From Myxococcota bacterium (GTDB lineage Bacteria; Myxococcota_A; Bradymonadia; UBA7976; UBA1532), in NCBI GenBank assembly GCA_963169045.1, contig CAUJDF010000091.1, positions 1 through 64,000 on the forward strand: a DNA stretch of 64,000 bases. The letters run 5' to 3'. Below the pieces are notes generated by a model. That model ran no database searches and was not told the DNA's origin. It saw only the letters and a list, made by a program, of their open reading frames with translations. Below are positions 25,081 through 40,799 of this stretch, piece after piece (the first letter of the stretch is position 1; each line of letters starts with the position of its first letter). Made by a program: the position numbers and the translations under genes.

Positions 25081-27021
25081 CTACTGCGGCGCCGCCCAGC
25101 CGCGCGGCGCCCGCTTCCAGCGCGGCCAGGCGGGGATGAGCAGCCCGCGCCGGCGCTGGTTGTTGATCACGTCCAGCATCTGCTGCGGGTTGCCGTCGCA
25201 CATGGCCACCAGCGTCCGGCGCTCGCTCGGCCGCAGCTCGAGCAGGTCGTCGGCGATGCGCTCCATGGCGTCGTCGGGCAGCGGGCGCAGCGTGCGCGTG
25301 GCCTCGGTGAGCCACGGCGGCGCCGCCAGCCCGGGCGCGGGCGTGGCGCTGCGCGCGGTGACCGCCACCAGGATGGGCAGGCGCGCGTCGCGCACGGCGC
25401 TCACGAGCGCGAGCACGTTGGCGTCGAGCGTCTCGAGGCCGTCCAGCCAGAGCACGAACGGCCGGTGGCGATGGCCGCAGTGCTGCAGGAAGTCGGTCAT
25501 GCGCCGCAGCTCGATCGCCGGCGCCACGACCATCGCGCCCTCGGACTTCGGCGCCAGCCACGCCAGCAGGCGATCGCGCACCTGCGCGTCGGCGCCGCGT
25601 CCCGACAGCCACCAGTCGAGGTGGTCGCGGGCGGCGTCGACCTCGAGGCCCAGCGCGCCGGCCACCGACAGCGCCAGATCCCGCACGCCGTGACCGGTGA
25701 CGTTCAGCGACGGCCAGAAGTGGCGGTGGCCCTCGAGGTGTCCGCCGGCGAGCCACGGCACCAGCGTCTCCTGGACCAGGCGCGACTTGCCGCACCCCGG
25801 CGGCCCGGTCATCACCAGCACGGCGGGTTGCGGTGTGCGGATCCAGCGCGAGAGGCTCTCGAGCAGCCGCTCGAGCAGCGCCTCGCGCCCGTGCAGCCGC
25901 GCGGGCCGCAGCGGCGGCTCGAGTGGGCGCGCGAGGCGGATGTCGGTGTTGACCGACACGCGCGATCCGCGCCGGCTCAACAGCGCCTCCGCCTCGTCGT
26001 CGGTCATCGTCGTGTCGTGCCGCACGTCCTGGCCCGGCGGCCGCGGCTCCGCCCGTCCCGGGTTGATGACCTCGAGCGGGGCGTCGGCGAGCATCGCCAG
26101 CGCGCGGCGCACCTCGGCCACGTGCTGGAGCCGGTCGTTGATCTCGGGCCGCATCATCTGGTCGAGCACGCTCCACAGCCCGACGGGCGTGGCGAAGCCG
26201 GCGCGCGGCTCGAGCGGGGGGCAGCCGTGGTCGAGCCGGATCATCAGCGACTGCACGGGGCTCGGCGCCCAGAAGGGCAGGCGCCCGCAGATGATCTCGT
26301 AGATCACGATCGCGAACGCGTACAGGTCGGTCCATGGCCCGATGCGCCGGCGCGACCCCGTGGCCTGCTCCGGCGCGGCGTAGTCGACGGTGCCGAGCAG
26401 ATCGTGGGCCGAGGTGCCGCTGCGCGCCTGGTCCTTCAGGCGCGCGACGCCGAAGTCGAGCAGGACCGGCTCGCCGCTCGCGTCGATCAGGATGTTGTCG
26501 GGTTTGATGTCGCGGTGGATGACGCCGCGTGCGTGCGCGTACCCCAGCGTCTCGAGGATGCGGTCGACGACCGGCCCCATCTGGCGCCAGTCGGTCCACT
26601 CGGCGCCGACCTCCTGCATGGGGCGGCCGGCATGCAGCACCATCACGAAGAACAGCCCCACCGTCGGATCGCGGCCGGCGTCGATGATCGGCACGATGCG
26701 CGGGTGGTCGAGGCGCGCCATGGCCTCGATCTCGCGCTGGAACCGCAGCTCGGCGGCCGGCGCGCCGGCGATGCTCGACAGCAGCACCTTCACCGCCACG
26801 GTCTGGCCCGTGAGCTGGTCGTGGGCGCGCCAGACCTCGCCCATGCCGCCCGCGCCGAGCCGGTTGAGCAGCGCGTAGCGACGGGCGATGAGCACGTTCG
26901 GCATGGCCGCCTCGTCGGGCGGCACGGCCATCTCGTGGGTGTCGCGTGTGTCGGTGGGGCCCGGTCGGGGTCCCGCCCGGTTCGGACCGGGACGCGCTCC
27001 ATCGTAGATCAGGCGCGACAT
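25081..27021 (-). CDS. Ser/Thr protein kinase - AAA ATPase fusion
   Basis: 646 residues from the ATG at 27021 (alternative starts at residues 31 and 40 lie nearer the kinase). Kinase domain about 45-310: GAGGMGEVWRA, Lys78, HRDIKPDN (169-176), DFG (189-191) and GTVDYAAPEQ. A linker leads to an ATPase with Walker A GPPGCGKS (406-413) and the Walker B-like VLWLDGLE. Unlike the larger kinase at 35.7 kb it has no TPR tail and ends soon after the ATPase. Probably a signalling kinase whose activity or assembly is controlled by the ATPase. Its neighbours are a convergent pbpC and a divergent Cys-rich lipoprotein. Confidence 0.88.
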   Translation of the reverse strand: MSRLIYDGARPGPNRAGPRPGPTDTRDTHEMAVPPDEAAMPNVLIARRYALLNRLGAGGMGEVWRAHDQLTGQTVAVKVLLSSIAGAPAAELRFQREIEAMARLDHPRIVPIIDAGRDPTVGLFFVMVLHAGRPMQEVGAEWTDWRQMGPVVDRILETLGYAHARGVIHRDIKPDNILIDASGEPVLLDFGVARLKDQARSGTSAHDLLGTVDYAAPEQATGSRRRIGPWTDLYAFAIVIYEIICGRLPFWAPSPVQSLMIRLDHGCPPLEPRAGFATPVGLWSVLDQMMRPEINDRLQHVAEVRRALAMLADAPLEVINPGRAEPRPPGQDVRHDTTMTDDEAEALLSRRGSRVSVNTDIRLARPLEPPLRPARLHGREALLERLLESLSRWIRTPQPAVLVMTGPPGCGKSRLVQETLVPWLAGGHLEGHRHFWPSLNVTGHGVRDLALSVAGALGLEVDAARDHLDWWLSGRGADAQVRDRLLAWLAPKSEGAMVVAPAIELRRMTDFLQHCGHRHRPFVLWLDGLETLDANVLALVSAVRDARLPILVAVTARSATPAPGLAAPPWLTEATRTLRPLPDDAMERIADDLLELRPSERRTLVAMCDGNPQQMLDVINNQRRRGLLIPAWPRWKRAPRGWAAPQ

Positions 27022-27133
27022 CTGCCCATCATATCCCCGGAACCCGGTGGATCGCGCAAGACCCTGCATCGGTGGGGACCCGAGGGCGCGCCGGCGTTGC
27101 CCGGCTCGGCGCGGCGCGGTTATCGTCCGCGCC

Positions 27134-28732
27134 ATGCGCTGCGCGCTGCTCCTCGTCCTCCTGCTGGCCGGCTGCGACGACGCCGCCTCTCCGGGCGCGT
27201 CCGACGCCGGACGCACGCCCGGCGTGCGCGACGCCGCCCGCGCCTTCGGCGACGCCCTGCCGCCGGCGGACGCCGCGCCGCCCTGCGGCTCCCAAGGGTC
27301 GCCGCACGCCGACGGTGGTTGCGCAACGCCACCGGGGCCCGACGCCGCGCCGCCCGACTGCCGCCTGAACAGCGACTGCGCGCCCGGTCTGTATTGCCGG
27401 GAGGGGCGCTGCTCGTTCGACTGCCGCGAGGCGCGCGATTGCCCGCCCGGCGCGCGCTGCGAGAGCGGCCAGTGCCGGTCCGGGCCGGAGTGCGCCGCCG
27501 ACGCCGACTGCGGCGCGCCGGCGCGCGTCTGCGAGGCGGGCGCGTGCGCCGACGGCTGCGCGATCACCGGCTGCGCGGCGGGGACGCGCTGCGACGCCGG
27601 CGGCGGGCGCTGCCGTCCCGAGGACTGCGGCGGCTGCGAGCCCGGCTTCGTGTGCGACCGCGAGGCGGCGCGGTGCGTGGTCGACGACTGCGGCGGGTGC
27701 CCGGCGGGGCGGCGCTGTCGCGGGGGCGAGTGCGTCGTCGAGGACTGCGGCGGCTGCCCCGCCGGCCAGCGCTGCCAGCGCATCACCGGCCAGTGTGTCG
27801 TCGAGGACTGCGGCGGCTGCGTCGTCGGCGAGCGCTGCGATCCGGTCGCCGCGCGCTGCGTCCCCGAGGACTGCGGCGGCTGCCCCGCCGGCCAGCGCTG
27901 CGACGTGGAGCGCGTCCAGTGCGTGCTCGTCGGTCACGGCGCGCTCGGCGATCCGTGCGCCCGCGACGCCGAGTGCGACAGCGGGATCTGCCTGCGCGTG
28001 AGCATCGGCGGGCGCCCCGAGAGCGCCTGCGCCACGCTGTGCTGCAGCGAGACGCAGTGCCCGCAGGGCTTCGGCTGCCTGTACTCGAGCGGCGCGCGCT
28101 ACTGCGTCCCCGGCCGCTTCAACGTCGCCGGCGACGGCTTCACCCGCGACGGCCGCCAGGCCTGCGGCGACAACGCGTGCCGCAGCGGCATGTGCGAGCT
28201 GCGCGAGAACGGCGACCGCTGCCTCGGCGCGTGCTGCACCGACAACGACTGCGTCGCCATCGGCGGCGGGTCCTGCTTCTTCGGTCAGGCCGGCGCGTCG
28301 ATGCGATCCTGGTGCGACCTGCCCGCGTCGATCATCGGCGGCTTCCCGGGCGAGCCGTGCGGCTACGGCTTCGGACCGCAGGAGTGCCAGAGCGGCATCT
28401 GCATCGCCAGCGGCCTCGCCGACCCGCCCGGCTTCTGCGCCGGCACGTGCTGCACGAACGCCGAGTGCGGCGAGCAGGTCTGCGGCCAGGTCGTCGGCTT
28501 CAGCGGCCGCCCCGAGGACGGCATCGCCACCGCCTGCGTGCCGCTGCCGCGCGGGGCCGCCGAAGAGGGCGCCGCCTGCGCCGACGACGCCGAATGCCAG
28601 AGCGGCCACTGCGTCGAGAACGTCTGCGCCGAGCCTTGCTGCTTCGACTTCGACTGCCGCGGCGAGCGCCGCTGCCGGCCGCGCGACAACGGCGAGGGCA
28701 CCCACGTCCGCGTGTGCTGGCTGGAACGCTGA
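27134..28732 (+). CDS. Cys-rich repeat lipoprotein
   Basis: 532 residues from the ATG at 27134. MRCALLLVLLLAGCDD is a textbook lipoprotein signal with Cys14 as anchor and Asp at +2. The mature chain has over 70 Cys in short repeats: five DCGGC(P/E)xG-type units (27.6-27.9 kb), then five longer CC-containing units such as CATLCCSETQCPQGFGC. The Cys pattern indicates many disulfide bonds and export. Similar Cys-rich surface lipoproteins are numerous in myxobacteria; function unknown. No MYXO-CTERM tail is present, unlike the metalloprotease. Divergent from the kinase-ATPase gene. Confidence 0.85.
   Translation: MRCALLLVLLLAGCDDAASPGASDAGRTPGVRDAARAFGDALPPADAAPPCGSQGSPHADGGCATPPGPDAAPPDCRLNSDCAPGLYCREGRCSFDCREARDCPPGARCESGQCRSGPECAADADCGAPARVCEAGACADGCAITGCAAGTRCDAGGGRCRPEDCGGCEPGFVCDREAARCVVDDCGGCPAGRRCRGGECVVEDCGGCPAGQRCQRITGQCVVEDCGGCVVGERCDPVAARCVPEDCGGCPAGQRCDVERVQCVLVGHGALGDPCARDAECDSGICLRVSIGGRPESACATLCCSETQCPQGFGCLYSSGARYCVPGRFNVAGDGFTRDGRQACGDNACRSGMCELRENGDRCLGACCTDNDCVAIGGGSCFFGQAGASMRSWCDLPASIIGGFPGEPCGYGFGPQECQSGICIASGLADPPGFCAGTCCTNAECGEQVCGQVVGFSGRPEDGIATACVPLPRGAAEEGAACADDAECQSGHCVENVCAEPCCFDFDCRGERRCRPRDNGEGTHVRVCWLER
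27617..27930. repeat. Tandem DCGGC coding repeats
   Basis: Five units of about 16-22 residues, each beginning with (E/D)DCGGC and containing a second Cys pair. The DNA units are alike enough to suggest duplication within the lipoprotein gene. Confidence 0.75.
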
Positions 28733-28788: not shown

Positions 28789-29934
28789 ATGGTCGACTTC
28801 AACCTCACGCAGGACCAGCAGCAGCTGCGCGATCTGGCTCGCAGCTTCGCCGCCGACAAGATCCGCCCGGTCTCGGCCCACCACGACGAGACGGGGGAGT
28901 TCCCGTACGAGGTGCTGAAGGAGGCCTGGAAACTCGGCCTCCTGAACACGCACATCCCCGCGGAGTACGGCGGCCTCGGCCTCGGCACGTTCGAGGGCGT
29001 GCTGCTCGGCGAGGAGCACGCCTGGGGCTGCACCGGCATCTCGACGGCGATGGAGGCCAACACCCTCGCCGAGGCGCCGGTCATCGTCGCCGGCAGCGAC
29101 GCCCAGAAGAAGAAGTACCTGGGCCGCATGATCGACGAGTTCCTGCTCGCCGCCTACGCCGTCACCGAGCCGGGCGCCGGCTCCGACGTGGCCGGCATCC
29201 GCACGACCGCCGAGCGCCGCGGCGACAGGTACGTGATCAACGGCGAGAAGATGTGGATCACGAACGCCGGCAAGGCGAACTGGTTCTTCGTCCTCGCCAA
29301 GACGGACCGCGACGGCGGCCACCGCGGCATGACCGGCTTCATCGTCGACGCCGACAGCCCGGGCATCCAGGTCAGCGAGAAGCTCTGGAACATGGGCCAG
29401 CGCGCCAGCGACACGCGCGGCATCACGTTCACCGACGTCGAGGTCCCCGTCGAGAACCGATTGGGGGAGGAGGGCGAGGGCTTCAAGATCGCCATGAAGG
29501 CGTTCGACAAGACCCGCCCGCTCGTGGCCTCGGGCGCCGTCGGCCTCGCCCGCGCGGCGATGGAGCATGCCATCCGCTATGCCACCGAGCGCCGCACCTT
29601 CGGCCAGCCGATCGGCAACCACCAGGCGATCGCCTTCATGATCGCCGACATGGCCAAGGACATCGAGGCCGCGCGCCTGCTCGTCTGGCAGTCCGCGTGG
29701 AAGATCGACAACCACCAGCGCAACACGCTCGAGGCGGCTTACGCCAAGTGCTTCGCCGCCGACATGGCGCACCGCGTGGCGAGCGACGCCGTCCAGGTCT
29801 TCGGCGGCTATGGCTTCAACACCGAGTACCCGGTCGAGAAGCTCTTGCGCGACTCGAAGATCTTCCAGATCTACGAGGGCACGTCGCAGATCCAGCGCGT
29901 CATCATCTCCCGCACCCTGCTCGGCCAGCGATAG
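28789..29934 (+). CDS. Acyl-CoA dehydrogenase
   Basis: 381 residues, the usual length for a soluble acyl-CoA dehydrogenase of the medium-chain type. Motifs: [16 protein letters not shown] (FAD and substrate binding), [14 protein letters not shown], and [12 protein letters not shown] near the end, where Glu363 is the catalytic base that takes the alpha-proton. [14 protein letters not shown] is also conserved. It oxidises acyl-CoA to trans-2-enoyl-CoA with transfer of electrons to ETF in beta-oxidation. Possible lipid supply partner of the neighbouring membrane-lipid operon; that link is only positional. Confidence 0.92.
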
Positions 29935-30201: not shown

Positions 30202-31020
30202 TCAGCGGGACACCGCCCCGGCGGCGTCGCGATCCGCCACGGCGCGCCGCGCGCACAGCGCCGCCGACAGCGCGAAGAAGCCACCGCCCGCCAGCACGTC
30301 GACCGCGTAGTGGTAACGCAGGTACAGCGTCGAGACGAACAGACCGAGACACGCCGGCAGCATGACCCGGAAGCGGCGCCGCGCGTGGCGCCGGTCGTGG
30401 TCGAGCATCACCAGCGTGATCAGCACGTGCAGGCTGGGAAACACGTCGTAGAGGGACGTGCCGCGCGAGATCACGGCGTGGTTGAGCGCCGTGGCCCAGC
30501 CTCCGGCGAGGGGCGCCGCGAACGCCTCGGGGTACGCGATGGCGGGGCCGGTGGCGGGGACGAGCAGGTAGCCGCCGAGGCCGAGCGCGAACGCGGTAAA
30601 GAGCGGTACGTACAGGCGCTCGGCGTCCTCGCGGCGGCGCAGCGCCCAGAGCAGGCCGCCGTGCACGTAGGCGTGGTAGCTCAGGTAACAGAGGCTCATC
30701 ACGTCGGTGAGCAGCGGCGTGTGCCAGGTCTGGATGGCGATGGCGGGGCTCTCGCCGAACAGCGCGCGGTCGGCGCGGAGCAGCGCGGCGTCCCACGTCG
30801 GCGTGCCGAGGGCGGGCGTGATCCAGGCGACGGCCTCGTAGAACCAGAGCGTGTAGACGTAGGCGGAGGCGAGCCGCAGGCGTGTGGGCGCGAACCGGCA
30901 GACGAGCGCGTAGACCGCCGTCGCGCCGAGCACGGCGAGGGCCGGCAGGGGGGCGCCGCGCACCGCCAGCGCGAGTGAAGTGAGGCCGCCGAGGGCGAAG
31001 AGGAGGCGCTCGTGGATCAA
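30202..31020 (-). CDS. PAP2-family phosphatase, inositol-phosphoryl-ceramide-synthase-like
   Basis: 272 residues from a TTG start at 31020 that overlaps the desaturase stop (TTGA); there is no ATG in this stretch, and the length fits. A membrane protein with about six helices. The PAP2_3/Aur1-type signature appears as LVPATGPAIAYP, FPSLHVLITL and LRYHYAVDVLAG, which supply the conserved Arg/His residues for phosphoryl transfer. It could dephosphorylate phosphatidate to diacylglycerol or transfer a phosphorylated headgroup. Last gene of the seven-gene lipid operon, four bases overlapping its upstream neighbour. Confidence 0.82.
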   Translation of the reverse strand: MIHERLLFALGGLTSLALAVRGAPLPALAVLGATAVYALVCRFAPTRLRLASAYVYTLWFYEAVAWITPALGTPTWDAALLRADRALFGESPAIAIQTWHTPLLTDVMSLCYLSYHAYVHGGLLWALRRREDAERLYVPLFTAFALGLGGYLLVPATGPAIAYPEAFAAPLAGGWATALNHAVISRGTSLYDVFPSLHVLITLVMLDHDRRHARRRFRVMLPACLGLFVSTLYLRYHYAVDVLAGGGFFALSAALCARRAVADRDAAGAVSR

Positions 31021-31910
31021 CGCGGCGTCACCGTCCCGCGGGGACCGCCGCCGAGCGTCGCGCGCGCGAAGTCGGCCACGAAGCGCAGGTAGGTCGGGAT
31101 GTAGGGCGCCTCGCGGCGCGCGAGGTCGTCGCGCAGCGCCGCGTGCAGGCGCGGCAGGTGGTACCAGGGCACGCCGGGGTAGAGGTGGTGCTCGAGGTGG
31201 AAGTTCTCGTTGCACATGAAGAATCGGGACACGGGCGTGCCGAGGATCGTCCGCGTGCCGCGCACGACGTCGCTCGCGTCGGCGAGCAGCGTGTGCTGGC
31301 TCATGCCACGGACGTTCACCAGCGTGTTGACGATGGCCATCGGCAGCAGCCAGCCGTGCAGCAGCCAGGGCCACGGCACCCACGCGGCGACGGCGGCGAC
31401 GAGCGCGACGAGGGCCGCCACTTCGCCGGCGACGAAGGCGCGGTCGCGACCCGTGCCCTGCCGCCAGCCGAGGACCGGGATGGCCGTGACGTACGCAGGG
31501 TAGCCGAGCAGCAGCCGGCCCCAGTGCATCGCGTAGACCAGCGCGCGGCGGCGCGTGTAGTTCTCGTAGTGGTCCGGATCGCCCTCGGCCCCGAGGTGGG
31601 CGTGGTGCCGCAGGTGGAGCACGCGGTAGGCCGCGAAGTTCTGCAGCACGGGCAGCGCGCACAGGGCGCCGAGCGCGTGGTTGACGGCGCGCCGCCGGGA
31701 GAGCACGCCGTGCACCGCCTCGTGCGTGAAGAGGCTGATGCCGTGCAGCGACGCCGCGGCGACGAGGGAGAGCGGCGCCGCCCAGGGCGAGGCGAGCGCG
31801 ATCGCGCCGGCGGCCGACCCGAGGTACAGCGCGGCGAAGATCCCGAAACGAAAGATGAATCGACGCGGCTCGTGCGCGTGTAGCGCGCGCAGGAGCGCGG
31901 CGTCGATCAC
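31017..31910 (-). CDS. Membrane fatty acid desaturase-like protein
   Basis: 297 residues from a GTG at 31910 that overlaps the preceding stop (GTGA). The three His boxes of the membrane desaturase family are visible: HEAVH (63-67), HLRHHAH (99-105) and, near the end, FHLEHHLYPG. They bind two irons. Four hydrophobic helices surround them. The family introduces double bonds into fatty acyl chains or hydroxylates lipids or carotenoids. In this operon an acyl chain of a membrane lipid is the likely target. Overlaps the PAP2 gene by four bases. Confidence 0.87.
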   Translation of the reverse strand: MIDAALLRALHAHEPRRFIFRFGIFAALYLGSAAGAIALASPWAAPLSLVAAASLHGISLFTHEAVHGVLSRRRAVNHALGALCALPVLQNFAAYRVLHLRHHAHLGAEGDPDHYENYTRRRALVYAMHWGRLLLGYPAYVTAIPVLGWRQGTGRDRAFVAGEVAALVALVAAVAAWVPWPWLLHGWLLPMAIVNTLVNVRGMSQHTLLADASDVVRGTRTILGTPVSRFFMCNENFHLEHHLYPGVPWYHLPRLHAALRDDLARREAPYIPTYLRFVADFARATLGGGPRGTVTPR

Positions 31911-32536
31911 CGGCGGCCCCGCGCTTCGAAGAGGTCGCGATACAGCCGGAGGAAGACGTAGGCGCCAAGCTCCAGGCCGGCGCGGACCTCGGGGCCGCCG
32001 ACCGCGAAGGCGGGCCGGTAGAAACCCTCGGCGTGGGCCGGATCGAGCCGCTCGTGGGTGGCGTAGTGCACGAGCGCGCCGGCGGGCAGCCAGCCGCGCG
32101 CGACGAGGGCCTCGCCGATCTGCGCCGAGAAGCCCGCGAACAGGTCCTCGATCATGCCCAGCATGGCCAGGCCCATCGCCGGCGGCTCGTGCTCGCACAC
32201 GGCGAGCAGCGTCGCGTTGAAGGCCCGCACCTCGGGCCACGGCGCCGCCGGCTCGCACGCGCCGAGGCGACGGAGCAGCTCGCGGAACGTGGCGCCGTGG
32301 GCCGCCGCCGGATCGCCGCGGCCCGCCTCGTCGGCCAGGTTGTCGACGAGCGCTTCGCGCGCGAGCGGCCCGCGCCCGAGCAGCGCCCGCATCGGCCGCG
32401 GGAAGAAGTCGACCGCAAACAGGAACTGCGCCTGCGTCGCGACGAAGTCGTCGTGCCCGAACGTCCCGTCGCGCAGCGCCGCGAAGTACGGGTGGTCGTC
32501 CGCCGACCGCTTCAGGTCAACGACGAGAGCGCGCAT
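31907..32536 (-). CDS. Heme-oxygenase-like diiron oxidase (iron-containing redox enzyme)
   Basis: 209 residues, helical, no signal peptide. It matches the Haem_oxygenas_2/HDO fold: HPYFAALRDGTFGHDDFVATQ at the start, then DEAGRGDPAAAHGATF, MIEDLF and HYATHERLDPAHAEGF. The Glu, His and Asp residues in these segments are the likely ligands of a diiron centre. Known relatives (UndA, BesC, SznF) use O2 to cut or oxidise amino acids and fatty acids. The aminocarboxypropyl group added by the nearby BtaA-like protein is a possible substrate. The ATG at 32536 lies 6 bases after the preceding stop; GTGA overlap with the next gene. Confidence 0.8.
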   Translation of the reverse strand: MRALVVDLKRSADDHPYFAALRDGTFGHDDFVATQAQFLFAVDFFPRPMRALLGRGPLAREALVDNLADEAGRGDPAAAHGATFRELLRRLGACEPAAPWPEVRAFNATLLAVCEHEPPAMGLAMLGMIEDLFAGFSAQIGEALVARGWLPAGALVHYATHERLDPAHAEGFYRPAFAVGGPEVRAGLELGAYVFLRLYRDLFEARGRR

Positions 32537-32542
32537 GCGTCG

Positions 32543-33430
32543 TCAGATCTCCGCCGTGGCGAGGTGCATCCACCGGATGCCCCGCAGGATACCCGGCCAC
32601 GCGAGCGCGTGGATCGTGCAAACGGCGCCGGGCTGCACCCCGCGGGAGGCGAGCCACGCCGTCTGCGGCTCGAGGCGCGCGTCGAGGCCGAAGCACGCGA
32701 TCTCGCCGTCGCGCCACGGCAGATCGCCGCAGCGGCGCAGGTAGGCGCCGAGGGTGGGCGTCCAGCCGCGCGGCCCGCGCGGCAGGTGCACGAGCGGCCA
32801 GGGCGCGCCGGTGGAGACGAGGCGCAGGTCCTTGCGGCCGGCGGTGGAGACGCGGTCCTCGTCCGCTTCGGGGCTGAGATCCGCGCCGGGATCGGCGGGC
32901 GGCGGGGGGCAGGAGGCGGCGTCGAGCGCGCGCAGCGCCGCCGGCGCGACGAAGTACAGCTGGAGCGTCGCGACCGGACGCGTGAGGCGGCCCGGGTGCA
33001 GCCCCTGCAAGCTGCGCGTCACGTCGCCCCTCTCGCCGCGCATCGCCGCGAAGTACGCGAGCCGCCACCGCCGGAAGCGCGGCTCGCGCATCTTCGCGAC
33101 GGCGCCGAGGGCGGCGCGGCGCGCGAGGCCCGTCCCGCGGTGGTCCGGCGCCACCTTCAGATCGCCGAGGTACACGGACGGAACGCGGCGTCCCGCGACA
33201 TCCGCCGTCCGCAGCACGCCGGCGATGGCGCCGACGACCCGCGGCCCGTCGGTGGCGACGAGATAGTGCGCGTCGCCGAGCCCGCGGTGGAACGCGCTGT
33301 AATCGTCGCCGTGGTCGATCGTGAAGGCGTCGTCGTCGAGCGGATAGGGGATGCCGGCCTCGAGCGCGCGCAGGCCGGGGACGAGCGGTCCGAGCGCGGC
33401 GGCCTCGTAGTGGCGCCACTCAGGACGCAC
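32543..33430 (-). CDS. GNAT family acyltransferase
   Basis: 295 residues, longer than a simple GNAT. An N-terminal GNAT domain (about 1-140) has the acetyl-CoA binding loop LGDLKVAPDHRGTGLARRAA and VPSVYLG before it. The C-terminal half (about 150-295) is a second domain of unclear fold, with ALYRLYF-like sequence and a WTPTLGAYLRR segment. No signal peptide. The substrate is unknown; in this operon it may N-acylate the amino group made by the BtaA-like enzyme, analogous to lyso-ornithine lipid synthesis (inference). Starts 11 bases inside the BtaA-like gene. Confidence 0.75.
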   Translation of the reverse strand: MRPEWRHYEAAALGPLVPGLRALEAGIPYPLDDDAFTIDHGDDYSAFHRGLGDAHYLVATDGPRVVGAIAGVLRTADVAGRRVPSVYLGDLKVAPDHRGTGLARRAALGAVAKMREPRFRRWRLAYFAAMRGERGDVTRSLQGLHPGRLTRPVATLQLYFVAPAALRALDAASCPPPPADPGADLSPEADEDRVSTAGRKDLRLVSTGAPWPLVHLPRGPRGWTPTLGAYLRRCGDLPWRDGEIACFGLDARLEPQTAWLASRGVQPGAVCTIHALAWPGILRGIRWMHLATAEI

Positions 33431-34307
33431 GCCGCGCGACCTCGATGCGCTCGTAGAAGAGCGAGCGGTCGCGCGCGAGCAGGTCCGCGCCGAGCGCGTC
33501 GTCGAACGTGAACGCCGGGGCGAAGAAGCGACGCAGATCGCGACGGTTGTTCAGCTGCCGCATCACGACGACCCCGCCCGGCCGCATCGCGCGCGCGAGG
33601 TGGGCTGCCCAACGTCCGACCAGGTCGTCCGCGGACCAGTCGAAGACGTTCGACAGGCTGACGAGCCCGAACCGGTCGAGCGCGGGCACGGCGAGCAGGT
33701 CGCCCAGGAGCCACGCCACGTCGCCGTGGCGGCCGAGGTAGGCCGGCGCCTCGACGTGGCGCTGCAAGAAGACGTGCTGCAGGAAGGGGTTGCGCGACGC
33801 GTCGTCCCGCGCGAGACCGCGCTCGAAGGCGCGTTGGAAATACGCCGGGTAGCTGCCGGGCGCGGCGTGCTGCGTCGCGGCGGGGCCGAACATCGTGTGA
33901 AGCAGCGCGTCGGAGAACGCGAGCGCGAACGCCGTCGGCCAGTAGCGGTGCGCCCGCCAGCGCGCGGCGAGGCCGATCGCGCCGACGAAGAACGCCTCGA
34001 GCTCGTCCTCGGGCGCGACGAACTCAGTGATCACGCCGCGCAGGACGCGGAACAGCCCCTCGAACGCGCCGCGCTGGTTGAGGGCGGCGAGGCGTCCTGC
34101 GTCCGTTTCTTCAGCCTTTTCGCGGCAGTGCGCGATCTGCGCCGGATTGATGTCGAACGCGGTGACGGCGACGTCCGGCCGGCGCCGGGCCAGGGTCAGC
34201 GCGGTGCAGCCGCCGGACGCGACGACGAGCGCCGCGTCGGCGTCGCCGAGCAGGGCCGCCTCGACCTCGGGATCCTCGCGGACGACGGCGAACTGCGGGC
34301 GTGTCAC
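33420..34307 (-). CDS. btaA: BtaA-like SAM:diacylglycerol 3-amino-3-carboxypropyltransferase (DUF3419)
   Basis: 295 residues from a GTG at 34307 that overlaps the preceding stop (GTGA). The DUF3419/BtaA signature: FAVVREDPEVE, then the SAM site ALVVASGGCTALTLA (26-40) and VTAFDINPAQIAH (48-60), and a late SLSNVFDWS. BtaA transfers the aminocarboxypropyl part of S-adenosylmethionine to diacylglycerol, the first step of betaine-lipid (DGTS) synthesis. It is a little shorter than known BtaA proteins, so another acceptor is possible. No BtaB-type N-methyltransferase is visible nearby, which normally finishes DGTS. Confidence 0.8.
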   Translation of the reverse strand: MTRPQFAVVREDPEVEAALLGDADAALVVASGGCTALTLARRRPDVAVTAFDINPAQIAHCREKAEETDAGRLAALNQRGAFEGLFRVLRGVITEFVAPEDELEAFFVGAIGLAARWRAHRYWPTAFALAFSDALLHTMFGPAATQHAAPGSYPAYFQRAFERGLARDDASRNPFLQHVFLQRHVEAPAYLGRHGDVAWLLGDLLAVPALDRFGLVSLSNVFDWSADDLVGRWAAHLARAMRPGGVVVMRQLNNRRDLRRFFAPAFTFDDALGADLLARDRSLFYERIEVARRAS

Positions 34308-35080
34308 GGCGGTCCGTCCTCGCCGGGCGGGCGCGCGGTCAGCGCGAGCTCGCGGGCGCGCGCCGGTGCCGCGCCCCTCGGCGCGCGCAGCGGCTCGATC
34401 ACCGCGTCGCTCGCCCCGGGCGGCGGCCGGAGCCGGCGGCGCTGCGCGCCCGGGCTCGCCGGCGCCGTGAAGCGCACGGGGACGCGGACGAACGCCTGCG
34501 GCGTCTCGAAGGCCTCTTCGGAGGCGGCGGCGATCGGGACGCCCGGCGTTGCCTGCTCCGGCGCGGCGGCGCCGGCCCGGGACCGCCGCAGCGGCTCGAG
34601 GACCCGGGCGCGCGTCCGGCCGCGGCGCTCGAAGAGCAGGATGGGATCGGCGTCGAACGCCTCGTCGAGCACGGCGTCGGGGAAGGCGCGCCGCAGGGCC
34701 TCGGGCGCGCACGCCCCTTCGCCGTGCGGCACGGCGTGGACTGCCCGCGACAGCGCCGCGGCGAGGGTCGCCGGCCGCGTCGCGTCGTCGGGCGCCGACA
34801 GCGCGACTGCCCGGTGCCCCTCGGTGCGCGCCGCGGCGGTCGCGACCCGCGGCACGAGGCGCCGCCGGCCGACGAGCTCCAACGTCAGCGGTGCGGCCAG
34901 CCCCGGGGCCACGACCGACGCCGGCGCGCGCGCCGCCTCGTCGGGCTCCGTCGCGGCCGGCGCGTCGAGCGCCGCGCCCGTGGCGCCGTGCAGCGCGTCG
35001 GGGTGGCCGCAGAGGAAAGGGGAGGACGAGTCGGGCAGGAAGGTGACGTGCGCCGACTCGGGCCCTCTACGGTGTCCCAT
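34304..35080 (-). CDS. Pro/Ala/Arg-rich protein of unknown function in lipid operon
   Basis: 258 residues from the ATG at 35080, which lies inside the preceding gene (overlap of 14 bases); it ends with a four-base overlap with the BtaA-like gene. No recognised domain. A core of about residues 60-200 reads as a plausible globular segment (LELVGRRRLVPRVATAAART, DPILLFERRGR), while the N- and C-terminal parts are Ala/Pro/Arg-rich. No signal peptide or membrane segment is clear. Strict operon placement with overlaps on both sides is the main evidence that it is a real gene. Confidence 0.5.
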   Translation of the reverse strand: MGHRRGPESAHVTFLPDSSSPFLCGHPDALHGATGAALDAPAATEPDEAARAPASVVAPGLAAPLTLELVGRRRLVPRVATAAARTEGHRAVALSAPDDATRPATLAAALSRAVHAVPHGEGACAPEALRRAFPDAVLDEAFDADPILLFERRGRTRARVLEPLRRSRAGAAAPEQATPGVPIAAASEEAFETPQAFVRVPVRFTAPASPGAQRRRLRPPPGASDAVIEPLRAPRGAAPARARELALTARPPGEDGPP

Positions 35081-35660
35081 CGGCCTGCCCGTCGCGCGTG
35101 CCGGAGTCGAACAGCACTTCGCCCAGCCGGTGCAGGTGGCGCGGGTGCAGCACGTTCTGCGGTCCGGCGCGGTCGACGGGCACGTCCATCGACCAGACGG
35201 CGAGCTCGGAGCAGTAGAAGCGCTCCTCGTTCGGGGCGCCGACGATGCCGAGGAAGTCGTAGCCGGCGCCGGCCTTGGCGCGCGCCCTCTCGACCGCGGC
35301 GCGGCCGCCCTCGGGCGTCCAGCCGCGGGGCCGCACGAGCTGGACGCGGTGCGACTCGCGCAGCAGCTTCTCGAGCGGCACGACGACCACGCCCTTGCCG
35401 ACGGCCTCGACCACCTCGAGGCGCTGGCGGTCGAGGATCGCCGCGTGCGAGAGCGGCGAGTTGGTCGAGACCGCGATGAGATCGTCGGTGGCGTGGTATC
35501 CGCGGACGACAAGCCAGTCGCCGTCGGCCCCGGCGCGCTTCACCGTGGCGAGCCAGGACGAGACCTCGGCCTCGTACTCGGGCCCGGTGCGGCGCACCAG
35601 CGCGTCCGTACCGGCGGAGCAGCCGGCGAGGAGGGCGAACAGCAGGAGCTTGCGTGTCAT
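35067..35660 (-). CDS. YiiX/YebB-like permuted papain-fold lipoprotein
   Basis: 197 residues from the ATG at 35660 (an upstream ATG at 35678 is less likely). MTRKLLLFALLAGC is a lipoprotein signal. The NlpC/P60-like permuted papain fold shows in GDWLVVRGYHATDDLIAVS, PLSHAAILD (catalytic His) and RFYCSELAVW (catalytic Cys). YiiX-like proteins hydrolyse or transfer acyl groups or cross bridges; the fold is shared with LRAT-type acyltransferases. It starts 19 bases after the kinase stop and overlaps the next gene by 14 bases. In a lipid operon it might act on a lipid amide or ester, though a cell-wall substrate is equally possible. Confidence 0.8.
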   Translation of the reverse strand: MTRKLLLFALLAGCSAGTDALVRRTGPEYEAEVSSWLATVKRAGADGDWLVVRGYHATDDLIAVSTNSPLSHAAILDRQRLEVVEAVGKGVVVVPLEKLLRESHRVQLVRPRGWTPEGGRAAVERARAKAGAGYDFLGIVGAPNEERFYCSELAVWSMDVPVDRAGPQNVLHPRHLHRLGEVLFDSGTRDGQADGTP

Positions 35661-35679: not shown

Positions 35680-38600
35680 TCAGCGCGATCGCGTGTGTCC
35701 CGTGGTGGAGTGGGTGCGCGTCACGAGCACGTCGAGCTTGTCGACGCGCTCGACCACGTCGTACTTGCGCGCGGCGACGGCGAGCTCGCGGATGGTGCGG
35801 CGCAGGCGCTCGGCCTCGTTGTCGTGCAGGCGCACGTCGTAGCGCAGGTCCTCGGCCTGCAGCAGGCGCATCTCGGCCTCGCTCCACCGGCCCTCGGCGC
35901 ACAGGGCCCACGCCTGGCCGAGGCAGGCGTAGAACTCGACGGCGAAGAGGTTGCCGCGCGCGTGGCCGTGGGCCTCCTCGAAGGCGGCCATCGCCGCCCG
36001 GGTGTCACCGCGGTTCCAGGCGCACAGGCCGATCTGCAGGCGCGCCACCGTCGCCGTCACCTCGCGACCGGCCTCGTCGGCCTCCTGGGCGATGCGCGTG
36101 AAGGCCTGCTCCGCGCGCTCGATCTGGCCCTCGAGGCGGTCGAGCTGCGCCAGCGCCGTCCGCGCCGCCAGCGCCTCGGCGAAGAGGCCCTCGGTGCGCG
36201 CGCTCTCGAGCGAAGCCTCGAAGGCCATCAGGGCCTGGTCCAGTCGGCCGAGGTGCTGGTAGAGCTGGCCGAGCGTGAGGTGCGCCAGGCAGCGCGCCCG
36301 CGGGTCGCCGCTCTTGCGCGCGAACTTCAGCGCATCCCAGAGCCAGTGCTCGGCGGCCTCGGGCTCGTCGTCGTGCAGGCGCAGCAGGCCGAGCCGGCTG
36401 GCGGCGCGGGAGCCCACGCCCGCCAGCTCGTTGCGCTTGGCGATCTCGAGCGCCTCCTGGGCGTGGTGCTCGGCCTCGTCGGGCTGGCCCGCGTGCTCGG
36501 CGGCCTCGCTGCCGATGAAGTGGATCTCGGCGCGCTGCTCCGGCGTGAGCAGCCGGGTGCGGTCGTCCCACTCGAGCACACGGCGCGTGAACGACACCGC
36601 GTGGCCCATGAGGCCGGCGCCGTGCAGCCGCCGAAGGCTCTCCTGGCCGAGCCCGAGCGCGCGCTCCATCTCGCCGGCCTCGGCGTGGTGCCGCGCGACG
36701 ACCTCGAGCTCGATTCCGGTCTGGTCCTGCTGCGCGCGCGCGAGCTTCAGCTCGGCCGCGGCGAGGTTCAGCTCGGGCCAGTTGCGCAGCTGGCGGCACA
36801 CGCTCTTGAACTGGTTGCGCACGAGATCGTGGTTGAAGCGCCAGCGGCCCTCGCCCTGCTCGACGATGAGGCCGGCGCTCACCGCCCGCTCGAGCATCGC
36901 CTCGACGACCTCCGGGTCCTGGGGCAGCTCGGGCGCCTCGGGATCGCCGTCGACCCCGCACAGCCGCAGCAACGGTCGCAGCGTGAACGACCGCCCGAGC
37001 AGCGTCGCCCGCGCCAGGGTGCTGCGCAGATCGCCGCCGCCGGGCCCGCGCGTGGCGCCGTCGATGCGCGTCTGCAGCACCGCGTTCGGATCGGACGGCG
37101 CCCGGCTGACGCCCTCCTCCTCGAGGAAGCCGCGCAGCGCCTCGAGCGCGATCAGCGGGTTGCCGGCGGCCTGCATGCACGCCGCCTCGGCCAGCCCGGG
37201 GGGCAGGGGGGCGAGCGCCTCGAGCGCCGGGGCCAGATCGTTCGGCCGCAGCGGGGCGAGCCGCAGGTGGTCGGTGCCCTTGAGCGCGAGCAGCGCCTGG
37301 CGCGCGGCCTGGACCGTGGTGCGCTGGCTCGGCCGCAGCGTCACCAGCATCAACAGCCGCGGCGGCCCGTCGGCCTGCGCGAGGCGGTGCACGAGCCGCA
37401 GGACGCGGCCCTCGGGCGACCACTGCGCGTCGTCGGCCCAGATGAGGAACGGCCGCTCGCCGACGAAGTCGCGGATCATGCGCGCGGCGCGCGCCGTCTG
37501 GATCTCGTCGTTCGTCTGCTCGCCGCCCGACGGCCCCCACAGCGCATCGATGGCGTTCTGGCGCGCCTCGGCCTCGGGGAACACCGCCGCCAGGATGTCG
37601 TCGGCCTCCGTCCGGACGGCGTCCGGTGCGCCGAGGTAGCGCAAGAACGACTGGCGCAGGCCGCCACCGCTGCGCACGTGGGGTTCGCTGCGGATGACGA
37701 GCGCCGGCATGCGCCCGGTCTCCTCGAGCCACTCGCGCAGGTGGCCGGCCAGGCGGCTCTTGCCGATGCCCGGCTCGCCCTCGATGAGGACGACGCGCGG
37801 GCCGTGACCGGCGAGCACGCCGTGGGCCGCCTCGAGCAGGATCTGCCGCGCCTCCTCGCGCCCGGCGATCGGCGGCTCGCGCAGGTGCAGCAGACCGGGG
37901 CCGCACGGCTCGCGAACCGGGACGATCGGCGAGCCGATGTTCGACAGCGGCTCGTCCATGCTGAGGAGGTCGTCGGGCGACTCGAACTCCGTCGGATCGG
38001 GGCGCGGGCCGAGCGCGTCGAGCGCGGCGCGCAGGTCGGCGACGGACCGGAAGCGGTGCACCGGCGACTTCTCGAGCAGCTTCGCGACGATGGGGACGAG
38101 GCCTGGCGGCGCGTCGACGTCCGGGCGCAGCGCGATCGGCGGCACCGGCGTGCGCTGGTGGTGCGTCAGCAGGTGCCGGCCGTGGAACGGCAGCTCGCCG
38201 GTGAGGATCTCGAAGAGCATCACGCCGAGCGAGTAGAGGTCCGTCCAGGGGCCGATGGCGGCGATCTCGCCCTTGGCGGCCTCGGGCGCGATGTACGCCG
38301 GCGTGCCCTCGATGCGGCGCCCGGCGACGCGGGCGTCGTGGACGGCGAGCGCGATGCCGAAGTCGACGAGCTTGAGCGACTCGGCGCCGAGGACGCCGGG
38401 GACGAGCAGCACGTTGCCCGGCTTGAGGTCGCGGTGGACGAGGTCGCGCGCGTGGGCGTGGGCCAGGCCGCCGAGCAGCAGGTCGATGAACGTCCACAGT
38501 CGCGGCCAGGACCACGGCTCGCGCACGAAGCGCGTCAGGCTCTCGCCCGGGACGTACTCCATCGCCACGAACGGCGAGTCGTTCGCCGTGCGGCCGTAGT

Positions 38601-38826
38601 CGTAGATGCCCACGACGGACGGGTGCGAGAGGCGCGCCATCGCGCGCACCTCGCGGTTGAACGAGCGGTCGGCGGTGCCCTTGCGGTCGCCCTTCAGGCT
38701 GAGCACCTTGACGGCGCAGTGGCCCCGGGCGCGGTGGCTGTAGGCGAGCCACACGGTGCCCATCGAGCCCTCGCCCAGCTCTTCGCGCGCCTCGTAGCCC
38801 TCGGGGAAGTCGTCGGGGGAGAGCAT
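35680..38826 (-). CDS. Ser/Thr protein kinase - STAND ATPase - TPR fusion
   Basis: 1048 residues from the ATG at 38826, which follows GGAGATC; an ATG at 38895 would add 23 residues. Kinase about 8-270: GEGSMGTVWLA, Lys40, HRDLKPGN (131-138), DFG (155-157) and GTPAYIAPEA. ATPase about 320-720: Walker A GEPGIGKS (350-357), Walker B FLIWADDAQW. The C-terminal third holds TPR-like repeats (e.g. RCLAHLTLGQLYQHLGRLDQ). This architecture is common in myxobacteria and suggests ligand-gated signalling. Directly upstream of the seven lipid genes with only 19 bases between, so probably the first gene of the transcript. Confidence 0.92.
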   Translation of the reverse strand: MLSPDDFPEGYEAREELGEGSMGTVWLAYSHRARGHCAVKVLSLKGDRKGTADRSFNREVRAMARLSHPSVVGIYDYGRTANDSPFVAMEYVPGESLTRFVREPWSWPRLWTFIDLLLGGLAHAHARDLVHRDLKPGNVLLVPGVLGAESLKLVDFGIALAVHDARVAGRRIEGTPAYIAPEAAKGEIAAIGPWTDLYSLGVMLFEILTGELPFHGRHLLTHHQRTPVPPIALRPDVDAPPGLVPIVAKLLEKSPVHRFRSVADLRAALDALGPRPDPTEFESPDDLLSMDEPLSNIGSPIVPVREPCGPGLLHLREPPIAGREEARQILLEAAHGVLAGHGPRVVLIEGEPGIGKSRLAGHLREWLEETGRMPALVIRSEPHVRSGGGLRQSFLRYLGAPDAVRTEADDILAAVFPEAEARQNAIDALWGPSGGEQTNDEIQTARAARMIRDFVGERPFLIWADDAQWSPEGRVLRLVHRLAQADGPPRLLMLVTLRPSQRTTVQAARQALLALKGTDHLRLAPLRPNDLAPALEALAPLPPGLAEAACMQAAGNPLIALEALRGFLEEEGVSRAPSDPNAVLQTRIDGATRGPGGGDLRSTLARATLLGRSFTLRPLLRLCGVDGDPEAPELPQDPEVVEAMLERAVSAGLIVEQGEGRWRFNHDLVRNQFKSVCRQLRNWPELNLAAAELKLARAQQDQTGIELEVVARHHAEAGEMERALGLGQESLRRLHGAGLMGHAVSFTRRVLEWDDRTRLLTPEQRAEIHFIGSEAAEHAGQPDEAEHHAQEALEIAKRNELAGVGSRAASRLGLLRLHDDEPEAAEHWLWDALKFARKSGDPRARCLAHLTLGQLYQHLGRLDQALMAFEASLESARTEGLFAEALAARTALAQLDRLEGQIERAEQAFTRIAQEADEAGREVTATVARLQIGLCAWNRGDTRAAMAAFEEAHGHARGNLFAVEFYACLGQAWALCAEGRWSEAEMRLLQAEDLRYDVRLHDNEAERLRRTIRELAVAARKYDVVERVDKLDVLVTRTHSTTGHTRSR

Positions 38827-38949
38827 GATCTCCAGTTCGGGATCGCCGAATACATCGGCTCCGCGGGAAGCCTCACCATAGCAGAACGGGGTCATCGTCT
38901 CACGATTGCGCCTGACGGCGCCCCGGGGCCGGGGCGACCGGCCGTCTCG

Positions 38950-38987: not shown

Positions 38988-40799
38988 ATGAAAAACCAGT
39001 CGATCCCCGCGATCTTCCGCGAGCAGGCGGGCAAGCTGGGCAGCCGCCCGATGATCTACGCGAAGGTGAGCGGCCACTGGTCGCCGCTGACCTGGGCCCA
39101 GGTGGCCGAGCGCGTCGACCACCTCGCGGCGGGCCTGATCGCCCTGGGGGTGCGGCCCGGCGACCGCGTGGGCCTCCTGTCCGAGAATCGTCCGGAGTGG
39201 GTGGTCGCCGATCTGGCGACCCTGTCGGCGGCCGCAGCCGACGTGCCCGTCTATCCGACCAACACCCCGGACCAGTGCGCTTATGTCGTGAACGACGCCG
39301 GCGCGCGCATCGTGTTCTGCAGCACGCTGGAGCAGGTGCAGAAGCTGCTGTCGGTGCGCGACGCGATGCCGCACCTCACCCACGTCGTGCACTTCGATCC
39401 GGACGTGGCGGCGCCGCCGGTCGAGGGCCTCACCGTCATGTCGCTGGCCGCGCTCGAGGAGCGGGGCCGGACGCACGGCGACCGCGCCGCGGTCGACGCG
39501 CGGGTCGAGGCGCTCGGTCCCGACGATCTGTTGACCCTCATCTACACCTCGGGGACGACGGGCGAGCCGAAGGGCGTGATGCTCACGCACGGCAACATCG
39601 TCGCCAACTGCGAGGCGACGCGGCGCGCGGTGCGGCTCGACAAGAACGACGTGGCGCTGTCGTTCCTGCCGCTCTCCCACAGCTTCGAGCGGACGGTGGG
39701 CTACTACCTCCCCGTGCTGTTCGCGGGCGCAACGGTCTATTACGCCGAGAACATGGACCGGCTGGGCGAGAACCTGGCCGAGGTGCGGCCGACGATCATG
39801 GCCGCGGTGCCGAGGCTCTACGAGAAGATGTACGCCGCGTTCCAGGAGAAGCGGGGGGCGGCGGGCCCGGCGCGGCGCGCGCTCGTCGACTGGGCGATCG
39901 GCGTCGGCCGGCAGGTGAGCCGCGCGCGGCAGGCGGGGCGCGCGCCCTCCGCGCTGCTGGCGGCGCAGCACAAGGTGGCGACGGAGCTGGTGCTCGGCCG
40001 CATCGCGGCGCGGCTCGGCGGGCGCCTGCGCTTCGCGTGCAGCGGCGGCGCGCCGCTGGCCGCCGATCTCGCCGAGTTCTTCCACGCGGCGGGCATCCTC
40101 GTGCTCGAGGGCTACGGCCTGTCCGAGACGGGCCCCGTGCTGAGCACGAACCGCCCCGAGGCGTTCCGCTTCGGCACCGTCGGCCGCCCGCTCGACGACG
40201 TGCGACTGCGCATCGCGCCCGACGGCGAGATCCTCGCCCAGGGCCCGAACATCATGCGCGGCTACTGGAACAAGCCCGAGGCGACGGCGGAGGTGCTCAC
40301 GGCCGACGGCTGGTTCGCCACGGGCGACATCGGCGAGCTCGACCGCGACGGATTCCTGCGCATCACCGACCGCAAGAAAGACCTGATCAAGACGGCGGGC
40401 GCGAAGTACGTGGCGCCGCAGAAGATCGAGGGCCTGCTCGAGCTGCAGCCGCACATCGATCAGGCGGTCGTCGTCGGCGACAACCGGCCGTTCTGCGTGG
40501 CGCTCATCGTCCCGACCTGGGGCAAGCTGCGCGAGCGCATGCGCGAGAAGGGATCGATGACCGGTGACCCCGCGGCGCTCGCCCGCGAGCCCGAGGTCCG
40601 CGAGCTTCTGCGGTCCGAGGTCGAGGCGGTGAACGCGCGGCTCGCCCCGTACGAGACCATCAAGAACTTCGTGCTCATCGATCGGCCGTTCACCCAGGAG
40701 AACGGCCTGTTGACGCCCACGTTGAAGCTGCGTCGCCGGGCCGTCGCCGTCGCGCACGCCGCCGAGATCGACGAGCTCTACCGACAGACCCGGCGTTAG
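38988..40799 (+). CDS. fadD: Long-chain acyl-CoA ligase (AMP-forming)
   Basis: 603 residues, of the FadD15-like size class. Motifs: LIYTSGTTGEPKGVMLTH (P-loop/ATP site, about 185-202), ACSGGAPLAADLAEFF, EGYGLSETGP and FATGDIGELDRDG, then TDRKKDLIKTAGAKYVAP near the C-terminus with the catalytic Lys of the thioesterification step. It activates fatty acids to acyl-CoA. Divergent from the kinase-led lipid operon across a 92- to 161-base gap; it could supply acyl-CoA for lipid assembly there, but also for general fatty acid use. Confidence 0.92.
   Translation: MKNQSIPAIFREQAGKLGSRPMIYAKVSGHWSPLTWAQVAERVDHLAAGLIALGVRPGDRVGLLSENRPEWVVADLATLSAAAADVPVYPTNTPDQCAYVVNDAGARIVFCSTLEQVQKLLSVRDAMPHLTHVVHFDPDVAAPPVEGLTVMSLAALEERGRTHGDRAAVDARVEALGPDDLLTLIYTSGTTGEPKGVMLTHGNIVANCEATRRAVRLDKNDVALSFLPLSHSFERTVGYYLPVLFAGATVYYAENMDRLGENLAEVRPTIMAAVPRLYEKMYAAFQEKRGAAGPARRALVDWAIGVGRQVSRARQAGRAPSALLAAQHKVATELVLGRIAARLGGRLRFACSGGAPLAADLAEFFHAAGILVLEGYGLSETGPVLSTNRPEAFRFGTVGRPLDDVRLRIAPDGEILAQGPNIMRGYWNKPEATAEVLTADGWFATGDIGELDRDGFLRITDRKKDLIKTAGAKYVAPQKIEGLLELQPHIDQAVVVGDNRPFCVALIVPTWGKLRERMREKGSMTGDPAALAREPEVRELLRSEVEAVNARLAPYETIKNFVLIDRPFTQENGLLTPTLKLRRRAVAVAHAAEIDELYRQTRR

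What the first reader, a model, noticed from the sequence alone, without database searches (positions are those of the whole stretch)
30202..35660. Possible undescribed membrane-lipid pathway: BtaA-like enzyme with diiron oxidase, GNAT, desaturase and PAP2 in one overlapping operon
Seven minus-strand genes run from the permuted-papain lipoprotein to the PAP2 phosphatase with overlaps of 14, 4, 11, 4 and 4 bases and one 6-base gap, and a sensor kinase gene lies 19 bases upstream. The BtaA-like protein (DUF3419) would put an aminocarboxypropyl group from SAM on diacylglycerol. The usual partner BtaB, which trimethylates the product to the betaine lipid DGTS, is missing. In its place are a GNAT-type acyltransferase, a heme-oxygenase-like diiron oxidase and a membrane desaturase. 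PAP2 could make the diacylglycerol. Inference: the cluster makes a new homoserine-type lipid that is N-acylated or oxidised instead of methylated.
Basis: partly seen in the sequence, partly recalled or inferred. Interest (0 to 1): 0.85.

Follow-up and report, generated by a model that had tools for sequence, protein, structure and literature searches.

The report
Conserved three-gene N-acyl amino-acid pathway
A set of three genes, found side by side in very different bacteria (myxobacteria, sponge symbionts, Legionella and others) and apparently undescribed, looks like a short assembly line that takes an amino-acid piece from S-adenosylmethionine, oxidises it with an iron enzyme and attaches a fatty chain to it.

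Summary
Comparative data move the finding's centre. The conserved unit is a trio: a short divergent DUF3419 (BtaA-like) protein, a GNAT and a heme-oxygenase-like diiron protein. The full trio is resolved in 76 of 80 named loci from Myxococcota, Poribacteria, Planctomycetota, Legionella, Kistimonas and others. Among 378 other Myxococcota genomes, GNAT and diiron orthologues occur in exactly the same 20. Desaturase and PAP2 accompany the trio only in 11 Myxococcus/Pyxidicoccus-type loci, divergently transcribed. The C92 lipoprotein and the seventh ORF are not conserved.

New facts: the GNAT is modelled with N-myristoyltransferase (NMT) architecture; its C-terminus superposes on NMT1's catalytic C-terminal residue and is conserved in 93/93 sequences. 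The diiron protein keeps all six ligands but lacks CADD's sacrificial Tyr and Lys. The DUF3419 keeps the SAM core but lacks about 30 cap residues and has Trp-to-Arg before Glu-Asp.

Best reading: aminocarboxypropyl transfer, diiron oxidation, N-acylation, giving an N-acylated, oxidised, SAM-derived amino-acid lipid. Diacylglycerol as acceptor is unproven. No held paper describes the trio.

The parts
33420..34307 (-). Enzyme D: short divergent DUF3419 (BtaA-like) class I SAM-fold protein, 295 aa; proposed 3-amino-3-carboxypropyl transferase, acceptor unknown
   Evidence: Pfam 1.3e-14; AlphaFold pLDDT 93; SAM-MTase fold Z 12.9; core residues E11 D12 G33 D52 G80 N173 Y285 kept; own clade 100/100
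32543..33430 (-). Enzyme G: tandem GNAT with N-myristoyltransferase architecture, 295 aa; proposed N-acyltransferase using its C-terminal carboxylate
   Evidence: Pfam GNAT; AlphaFold pLDDT 91; VIA Z 16.4 to NMTs, residue 295 on NMT1 496; C-terminus [TS]xx[IL] in 93/93
31907..32536 (-). Enzyme H: heme-oxygenase-like diiron protein (HDO), 209 aa; proposed O2-dependent oxidation of the amino-acid intermediate
   Evidence: Pfam Haem_oxygenas_2 4e-14; ligands E70 H80 E130 H161 D165 H168 invariant; profile hits CADD, HrmI, BesC
31017..31910 (-). Accessory: membrane FA_desaturase-family enzyme, 297 aa
   Evidence: Pfam 2.3e-47; 58-64% identical homologue beside the trio in 11 Myxococcus/Pyxidicoccus-type loci; absent from 378 other Myxococcota genomes at E 1e-60
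30202..31020 (-). Accessory: PAP2_3 (Aur1/Ipt1-type) membrane phosphatase or phosphotransferase, 272 aa, TTG start
   Evidence: Pfam 8e-18; 46-55% identical homologue next to the desaturase in the same 11 loci
34304..35080 (-). Unknown ORF, 258 aa; gene status and membership uncertain
   Evidence: no Pfam/NCBIfam match; GC2 0.66; no homologue beside other trios
35067..35660 (-). C92 (YaeF/YiiX) permuted papain-like lipoprotein; same strand and overlapping, but not conserved with the trio
   Evidence: Pfam 9.5e-8; no homologue beside other trios

Best explanation
The core is a mobile three-enzyme pathway. Enzyme D (DUF3419) transfers the 3-amino-3-carboxypropyl group of SAM to an acceptor, giving a product with a free alpha-amino acid. 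Enzyme H (diiron HDO) oxidises that amino acid with O2. Enzyme G (NMT-like tandem GNAT) N-acylates the amine, probably with a long acyl chain, using its own C-terminal carboxylate as base. The product would be an N-acylated, oxidised, SAM-derived amino-acid lipid. In the window organism and in Myxococcus, a linked desaturase and PAP2 enzyme probably tailor it or supply the acceptor. Shown here: conservation and linkage of the trio, the families, the diiron ligand set, the SAM-fold core, and (on a predicted model) the NMT architecture with a conserved C-terminus. Inferred: each reaction, their order and the product. Unknown: the acceptor and the kind of oxidation.
For: Trio co-occurrence: GNAT and diiron orthologues in the same 20 of 378 other Myxococcota genomes. 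Trio resolved in 76 of 80 named loci across several phyla, 71 of them D-G-H or D-H-G on one strand. D and G usually overlap by 4 bases. Evolutionary distances correlate at 0.75-0.88. D keeps superfamily core residues and a SAM fold. H keeps six diiron ligands; known HDOs act mainly on fatty or amino acids (PMC13108848). G matches NMT over 248 of 295 residues with the C-termini superposed and a fixed C-terminus in 93/93; in NMT that carboxylate is the catalytic base (PMC4964394). D-H-G gene order in Poribacteria, Planctomycetota and Legionella matches the proposed order.
Against: No reaction has been assayed. D lacks about 30 cap residues and the Trp of the WED motif, so its acceptor, and even the transferred group (methyl versus aminocarboxypropyl), could differ. 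Architecture does not fix G's acyl length: the double-GNAT HisAT uses acetyl-CoA (PMC12219266). No transporter, thioesterase or other lipid gene recurs beside the trio. One locus, L065, lacks H.
Confidence: 0.45

Rival explanations
1. Lipohydroxamate variant of the main reading: H is an N-oxygenase that hydroxylates the amine made by D, and G acylates the N-OH, as N-hydroxylase plus GNAT pairs do in siderophore pathways. The product would be a metal-binding lipid.
For: H's profile matches the N-oxygenase HrmI, with the same E-x9-H spacing in the first ligand helix; oxidase plus GNAT is the classic hydroxamate pair (own knowledge).
Against: H matches CADD and BesC equally well. No iron-uptake or TonB gene recurs among the neighbour families listed.
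Confidence: 0.18
2. Small diffusible product: D uses a small acceptor, or cyclises or hydrolyses SAM, rather than a glycerolipid. H and G turn it into an N-acyl amino-acid signal or antibiotic-like compound used against or with eukaryotes and prey.
For: Shortened D cap; hosts include predators, sponge-associated Poribacteria, Legionella and Kistimonas; HDOs are common in natural-product pathways (PMC13108848).
Against: No conserved exporter or regulator beside the trio; lipid-type partners (desaturase, PAP2) in Myxococcaceae.
Confidence: 0.22
3. One reading: PAP2 makes diacylglycerol, D makes diacylglyceryl-homoserine, H, G and the desaturase finish a new membrane lipid, and all five genes are needed.
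For: Five-gene set kept in 11 Myxococcus/Pyxidicoccus-type loci with a rearranged orientation; close desaturase orthologues absent from the other 378 sampled genomes.
Against: Most trio loci have no adjacent homologue of this desaturase or PAP2; D is far from the longer DUF3419 proteins; PAP2_3 resembles Aur1-type transferases as much as a PA phosphatase.
Confidence: 0.12
4. Ordinary betaine-lipid (DGTS) synthesis with BtaB encoded elsewhere; the linked genes are incidental.
For: DUF3419 family membership.
Against: Linkage of H and G to D across several phyla. No methyltransferase family among the 25 listed for 49 neighbours. D is a separate clade from the longer DUF3419 proteins. DGTS synthesis needs neither HDO nor N-acylation.
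Confidence: 0.03

Closest known systems
BtaA/BtaB betaine-lipid (DGTS) pathway
   Same: DUF3419 family with SAM core motifs; probable aminocarboxypropyl chemistry
   Different: No BtaB seen nearby; enzyme about 30 residues shorter in the cap, Arg for Trp before Glu-Asp, own clade; partnered with HDO and GNAT instead of a methyltransferase
Heme-oxygenase-like dimetal oxidases (CADD, HrmI, BesC, UndA)
   Same: PF14518-type fold family and the full 3-His/3-carboxylate ligand set
   Different: CADD's sacrificial Tyr27 and Lys152 positions are Phe and Leu; the linked partners D and G are not reported for any characterised HDO in the papers held
N-myristoyltransferase (NMT) and the HisAT/NAT16 double-GNAT group
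   Same: Tandem GNAT architecture and, as in NMT only, a C-terminus that reaches the active site
   Different: About 10% identity, no Pfam NMT match, bacterial, encoded in a small-molecule operon
Hydroxamate siderophore N-hydroxylase plus GNAT pairs (e.g. IucD/IucB, MbtG/MbtK)
   Same: Amine oxidation possibly followed by GNAT acylation (own knowledge)
   Different: Flavin enzyme replaced by an HDO; the amine would come from SAM; no iron-uptake genes nearby

Membership tests
BtaA (SAM:diacylglycerol 3-amino-3-carboxypropyltransferase) | Pfam DUF3419 over its cut-off | tested here: met
   54.6 bits against 28.2
BtaA (SAM:diacylglycerol 3-amino-3-carboxypropyltransferase) | SAM-site and superfamily core residues | tested here: met
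   E11 D12 G33 D52 G80 N173 Y285 shared
BtaA (SAM:diacylglycerol 3-amino-3-carboxypropyltransferase) | Full-length cap and WED motif, as in the longer DUF3419 proteins | tested here: not met
   cap interval 25 vs 57 residues; Arg for Trp in 100/100
BtaA (SAM:diacylglycerol 3-amino-3-carboxypropyltransferase) | Diacylglycerol acceptor and aminocarboxypropyl transfer | not testable with these tools
   Needs an enzyme assay
DGTS pathway | BtaB methyltransferase beside BtaA | tested here: not met
   None in the window operon or among the 25 most frequent neighbour families; elsewhere in the genome not tested
HDO superfamily | Six metal ligands on the HDO fold | tested here: met
   E70 H80 E130 H161 D165 H168 invariant in 20 sequences, aligned to CADD and HrmI ligands
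HDO superfamily | Bound diiron cluster and O2 chemistry | not testable with these tools
   Needs purified protein
CADD / self-sacrificing pABA synthase | Sacrificial Tyr27 and catalytic Lys152 (CADD numbering, own knowledge) | tested here: not met
   Aligned residues are Phe and Leu in the profile
NMT | Tandem-GNAT architecture | tested here: met
   Predicted model, Z 16.4, rmsd 3.8, 248 residues, all 50 best rows NMT
NMT | C-terminal carboxylate in the active site | tested here: inconclusive
   Residue 295 superposes on NMT1 496 and the C-terminus is fixed in 93/93; catalysis not shown
NMT | Myristoyl-CoA donor and protein N-terminal glycine acceptor | not testable with these tools
   Needs an assay or a ligand-bound structure

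The most novel reading that the evidence does not exclude
An undescribed, horizontally spread pathway makes a new class of N-acylated, oxidised, SAM-derived amino-acid lipids, using a bacterial NMT-type acyltransferase that acts on a small metabolite, a new diiron reaction, and a DUF3419 enzyme with a new acceptor.
Probability: 0.4. Interest if true: 0.85.

Novelty: new variant of a known kind. Interest (0 to 1): 0.7.

Why it matters
The trio gives a sharp, small and testable target: three genes, widespread, in culturable hosts (Myxococcus, Pyxidicoccus). If right, it adds a new lipid or metabolite class, extends BtaA-type chemistry beyond betaine lipids, gives a new diiron reaction on an amino acid, and shows NMT-type catalysis in bacterial small-molecule biosynthesis.

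Tried and rejected
Seven-gene pathway: rejected, because the C92 lipoprotein, the unknown ORF and the kinase are not conserved with the trio. CADD-like pABA synthase for H: rejected on the missing Tyr27/Lys152 equivalents. Recurrent extra partner in other phyla: none found; Pfam over 49 neighbours saw no family in more than two; some Poribacteria share further neighbours (MORN repeats, WD40, Rieske), which look like shared genome context. Only Legionella has a conserved extra lipid-type gene, a second DUF3419. Viral contigs: no relative. Plasmids: no match. Foldseek with the DUF3419 model returned only SAM methyltransferases with weak scores, so the cap's fold is untested rather than new. Literature: four papers mention DUF3419, none with an HDO or GNAT. 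The idea that the desaturase acts on a homoserine head group, as RtxC does in rhizobitoxine, rests only on a below-cut-off hit to the arginine hydroxylase GntB (88 bits, cut-off 380) and was left as a lead. BtaA sequences of proven function were not at hand; comparators were longer DUF3419 proteins from Myxococcota.

Full report
Observation. Pfam confirms the family names for six of the seven. The seventh, 34304-35080, matches nothing and has an unusual second-position GC of 0.66. The upstream kinase is a Ser/Thr kinase with AAA and TPR regions, not a histidine sensor kinase.

What is conserved. A search of 143 relatives with the DUF3419 protein (D) found eight strong orthologues, and each is followed by the GNAT (G) and the diiron protein (H). 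A search of 379 Myxococcota genomes with G and then with H found strong orthologues in the same 20 other genomes, from about nine families, and in no others. By the hypergeometric this is about 1e-33, though genomes are not independent. Genomes of the window's own family lack the trio, so it was probably acquired horizontally. In the 20 fetched Myxococcota loci only the trio recurs widely; further shared neighbours are limited to pairs or triples of loci.

Breadth. One scan of the species-genome collection with the DUF3419 alignment gave 80 named loci: Myxococcus and Pyxidicoccus, other Myxococcota, many Poribacteria, Planctomycetota, five Legionella species, Kistimonas, a betaproteobacterium, Oligoflexales and a Rickettsiaceae MAG. 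Many are MAGs, so single odd taxa (for example Vogelbacteria) may be binning errors. The complete trio could be placed in 76; most of the rest are cut by contig ends, and L065 is a real exception without H. Orders are D-G-H in 36, D-H-G in 35, and five variants. D and G, where adjacent, usually overlap by 4 bases. Distances of the three proteins correlate at 0.75 to 0.88 across 91 loci, consistent with joint inheritance.

Accessory genes. Desaturase (58-64% identical) and PAP2 (46-55%) lie beside the trio in 11 Myxococcus/Pyxidicoccus-type loci, as a divergent pair 25-163 bases from D. Close desaturase orthologues are absent from the other 378 sampled genomes. Because those loci were found through the trio, independence of the pair from it was tested only. 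In five Legionella loci a second, longer DUF3419 follows the trio.

Enzyme D. The model is confident (pLDDT 93) and is a class I SAM fold (Z 12.9, 159 residues). Against 11 longer Myxococcota DUF3419 proteins, the superfamily core is kept: E11, D12, G33, D52, G80, N173 and Y285. Differences: Arg for Trp before Glu-Asp in all 100 trio proteins, a cap interval of 25 instead of 57 residues, and about 10 fewer residues between 188 and 220. In a tree the trio proteins form one clade at 100/100, apart from the longer ones. Inference: aminocarboxypropyl transfer is likely; diacylglycerol as acceptor is uncertain.

Enzyme H. A profile of H finds CADD, HrmI, a second pABA synthase and BesC in the PDB. 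Six ligand positions are invariant. The alignment puts Phe and Leu where CADD has its sacrificial Tyr27 and catalytic Lys152, so H is not that kind. A recent review says characterised HDOs act mainly on fatty or amino acids and number only about a dozen (PMC13108848). The type of oxidation cannot be read from sequence.

Enzyme G. By sequence G is just a GNAT. The model (pLDDT 91) is a tandem GNAT; all 50 best VIA matches are N-myristoyltransferases, Z 16.4 at 3.8 A over 248 residues, with G's last residue on NMT1 residue 496. Every complete G ends [TS]-x-x-[IL] or a close variant (93 of 93). In NMT that terminal carboxylate is the catalytic base, described as unique within GNATs (PMC4964394), while the double-GNAT HisAT ends earlier; structure searches had already detected NMT-type double-GNATs in bacteria (PMC12219266). 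A fixed C-terminus is what this mechanism predicts. Inference: G N-acylates an amine, perhaps with a long chain.

Mechanism. The simplest chain is D then H then G, which is also the gene order in Poribacteria, Planctomycetota and Legionella. None of these is excluded. Ordinary betaine-lipid synthesis is very unlikely.

Novelty. No NCBIfam family covers the trio proteins at its cut-off, and no held paper links DUF3419 with an HDO or this GNAT. The library holds only open-licence papers, so a description elsewhere is possible.

Noticed in passing
L102:8508-9623, L113:8579-9673 and the matching places in L112, L115, L117: In five Legionella species a second, longer DUF3419 protein (364-418 aa, Asn in place of Trp/Arg before Glu-Asp) follows the trio directly, making a D-H-G-D2 cluster. 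Two aminocarboxypropyl transfers may occur there.
   Followed up: partly
L102, L112, L113, L115, L117: The Legionella species with the trio (anisa, bozemanae, parisiensis, steelei, steigerwaltii) include several blue-white autofluorescent ones (from memory). Shared ancestry may explain this, and the known pigment legioliulin is a polyketide.
   Followed up: no
window 38988-40799 (+) and 28789-29934 (+): The cluster is flanked by an AMP-binding enzyme (looks like a long-chain acyl-CoA synthetase) and an acyl-CoA dehydrogenase on the other strand; not tested for conservation with the trio.
   Followed up: partly
G000:C2:59137-59652 (L002): The genome holds a second, very divergent DUF3419 relative (44 bits with its neighbours in the frame), possibly degenerate or non-catalytic.
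   Followed up: no
window 25081-27786 (-) and 35680-38895 (-): Two large Ser/Thr-kinase-type proteins with predicted ATPase regions lie on either side of the operon.
   Followed up: no
window 27047-28732 (+): A cysteine-rich 561-aa protein with many repeated C-x-x-C-type motifs and no Pfam match.
   Followed up: no
neighbours of trio loci in alignment A4: Among 49 neighbours, single cases of another FA_desaturase (probably L073:3939-5111), a CarF/plasmalogen-type Lipid_desat and a PS decarboxylase appear: weak further hints of a lipid context.
   Followed up: partly
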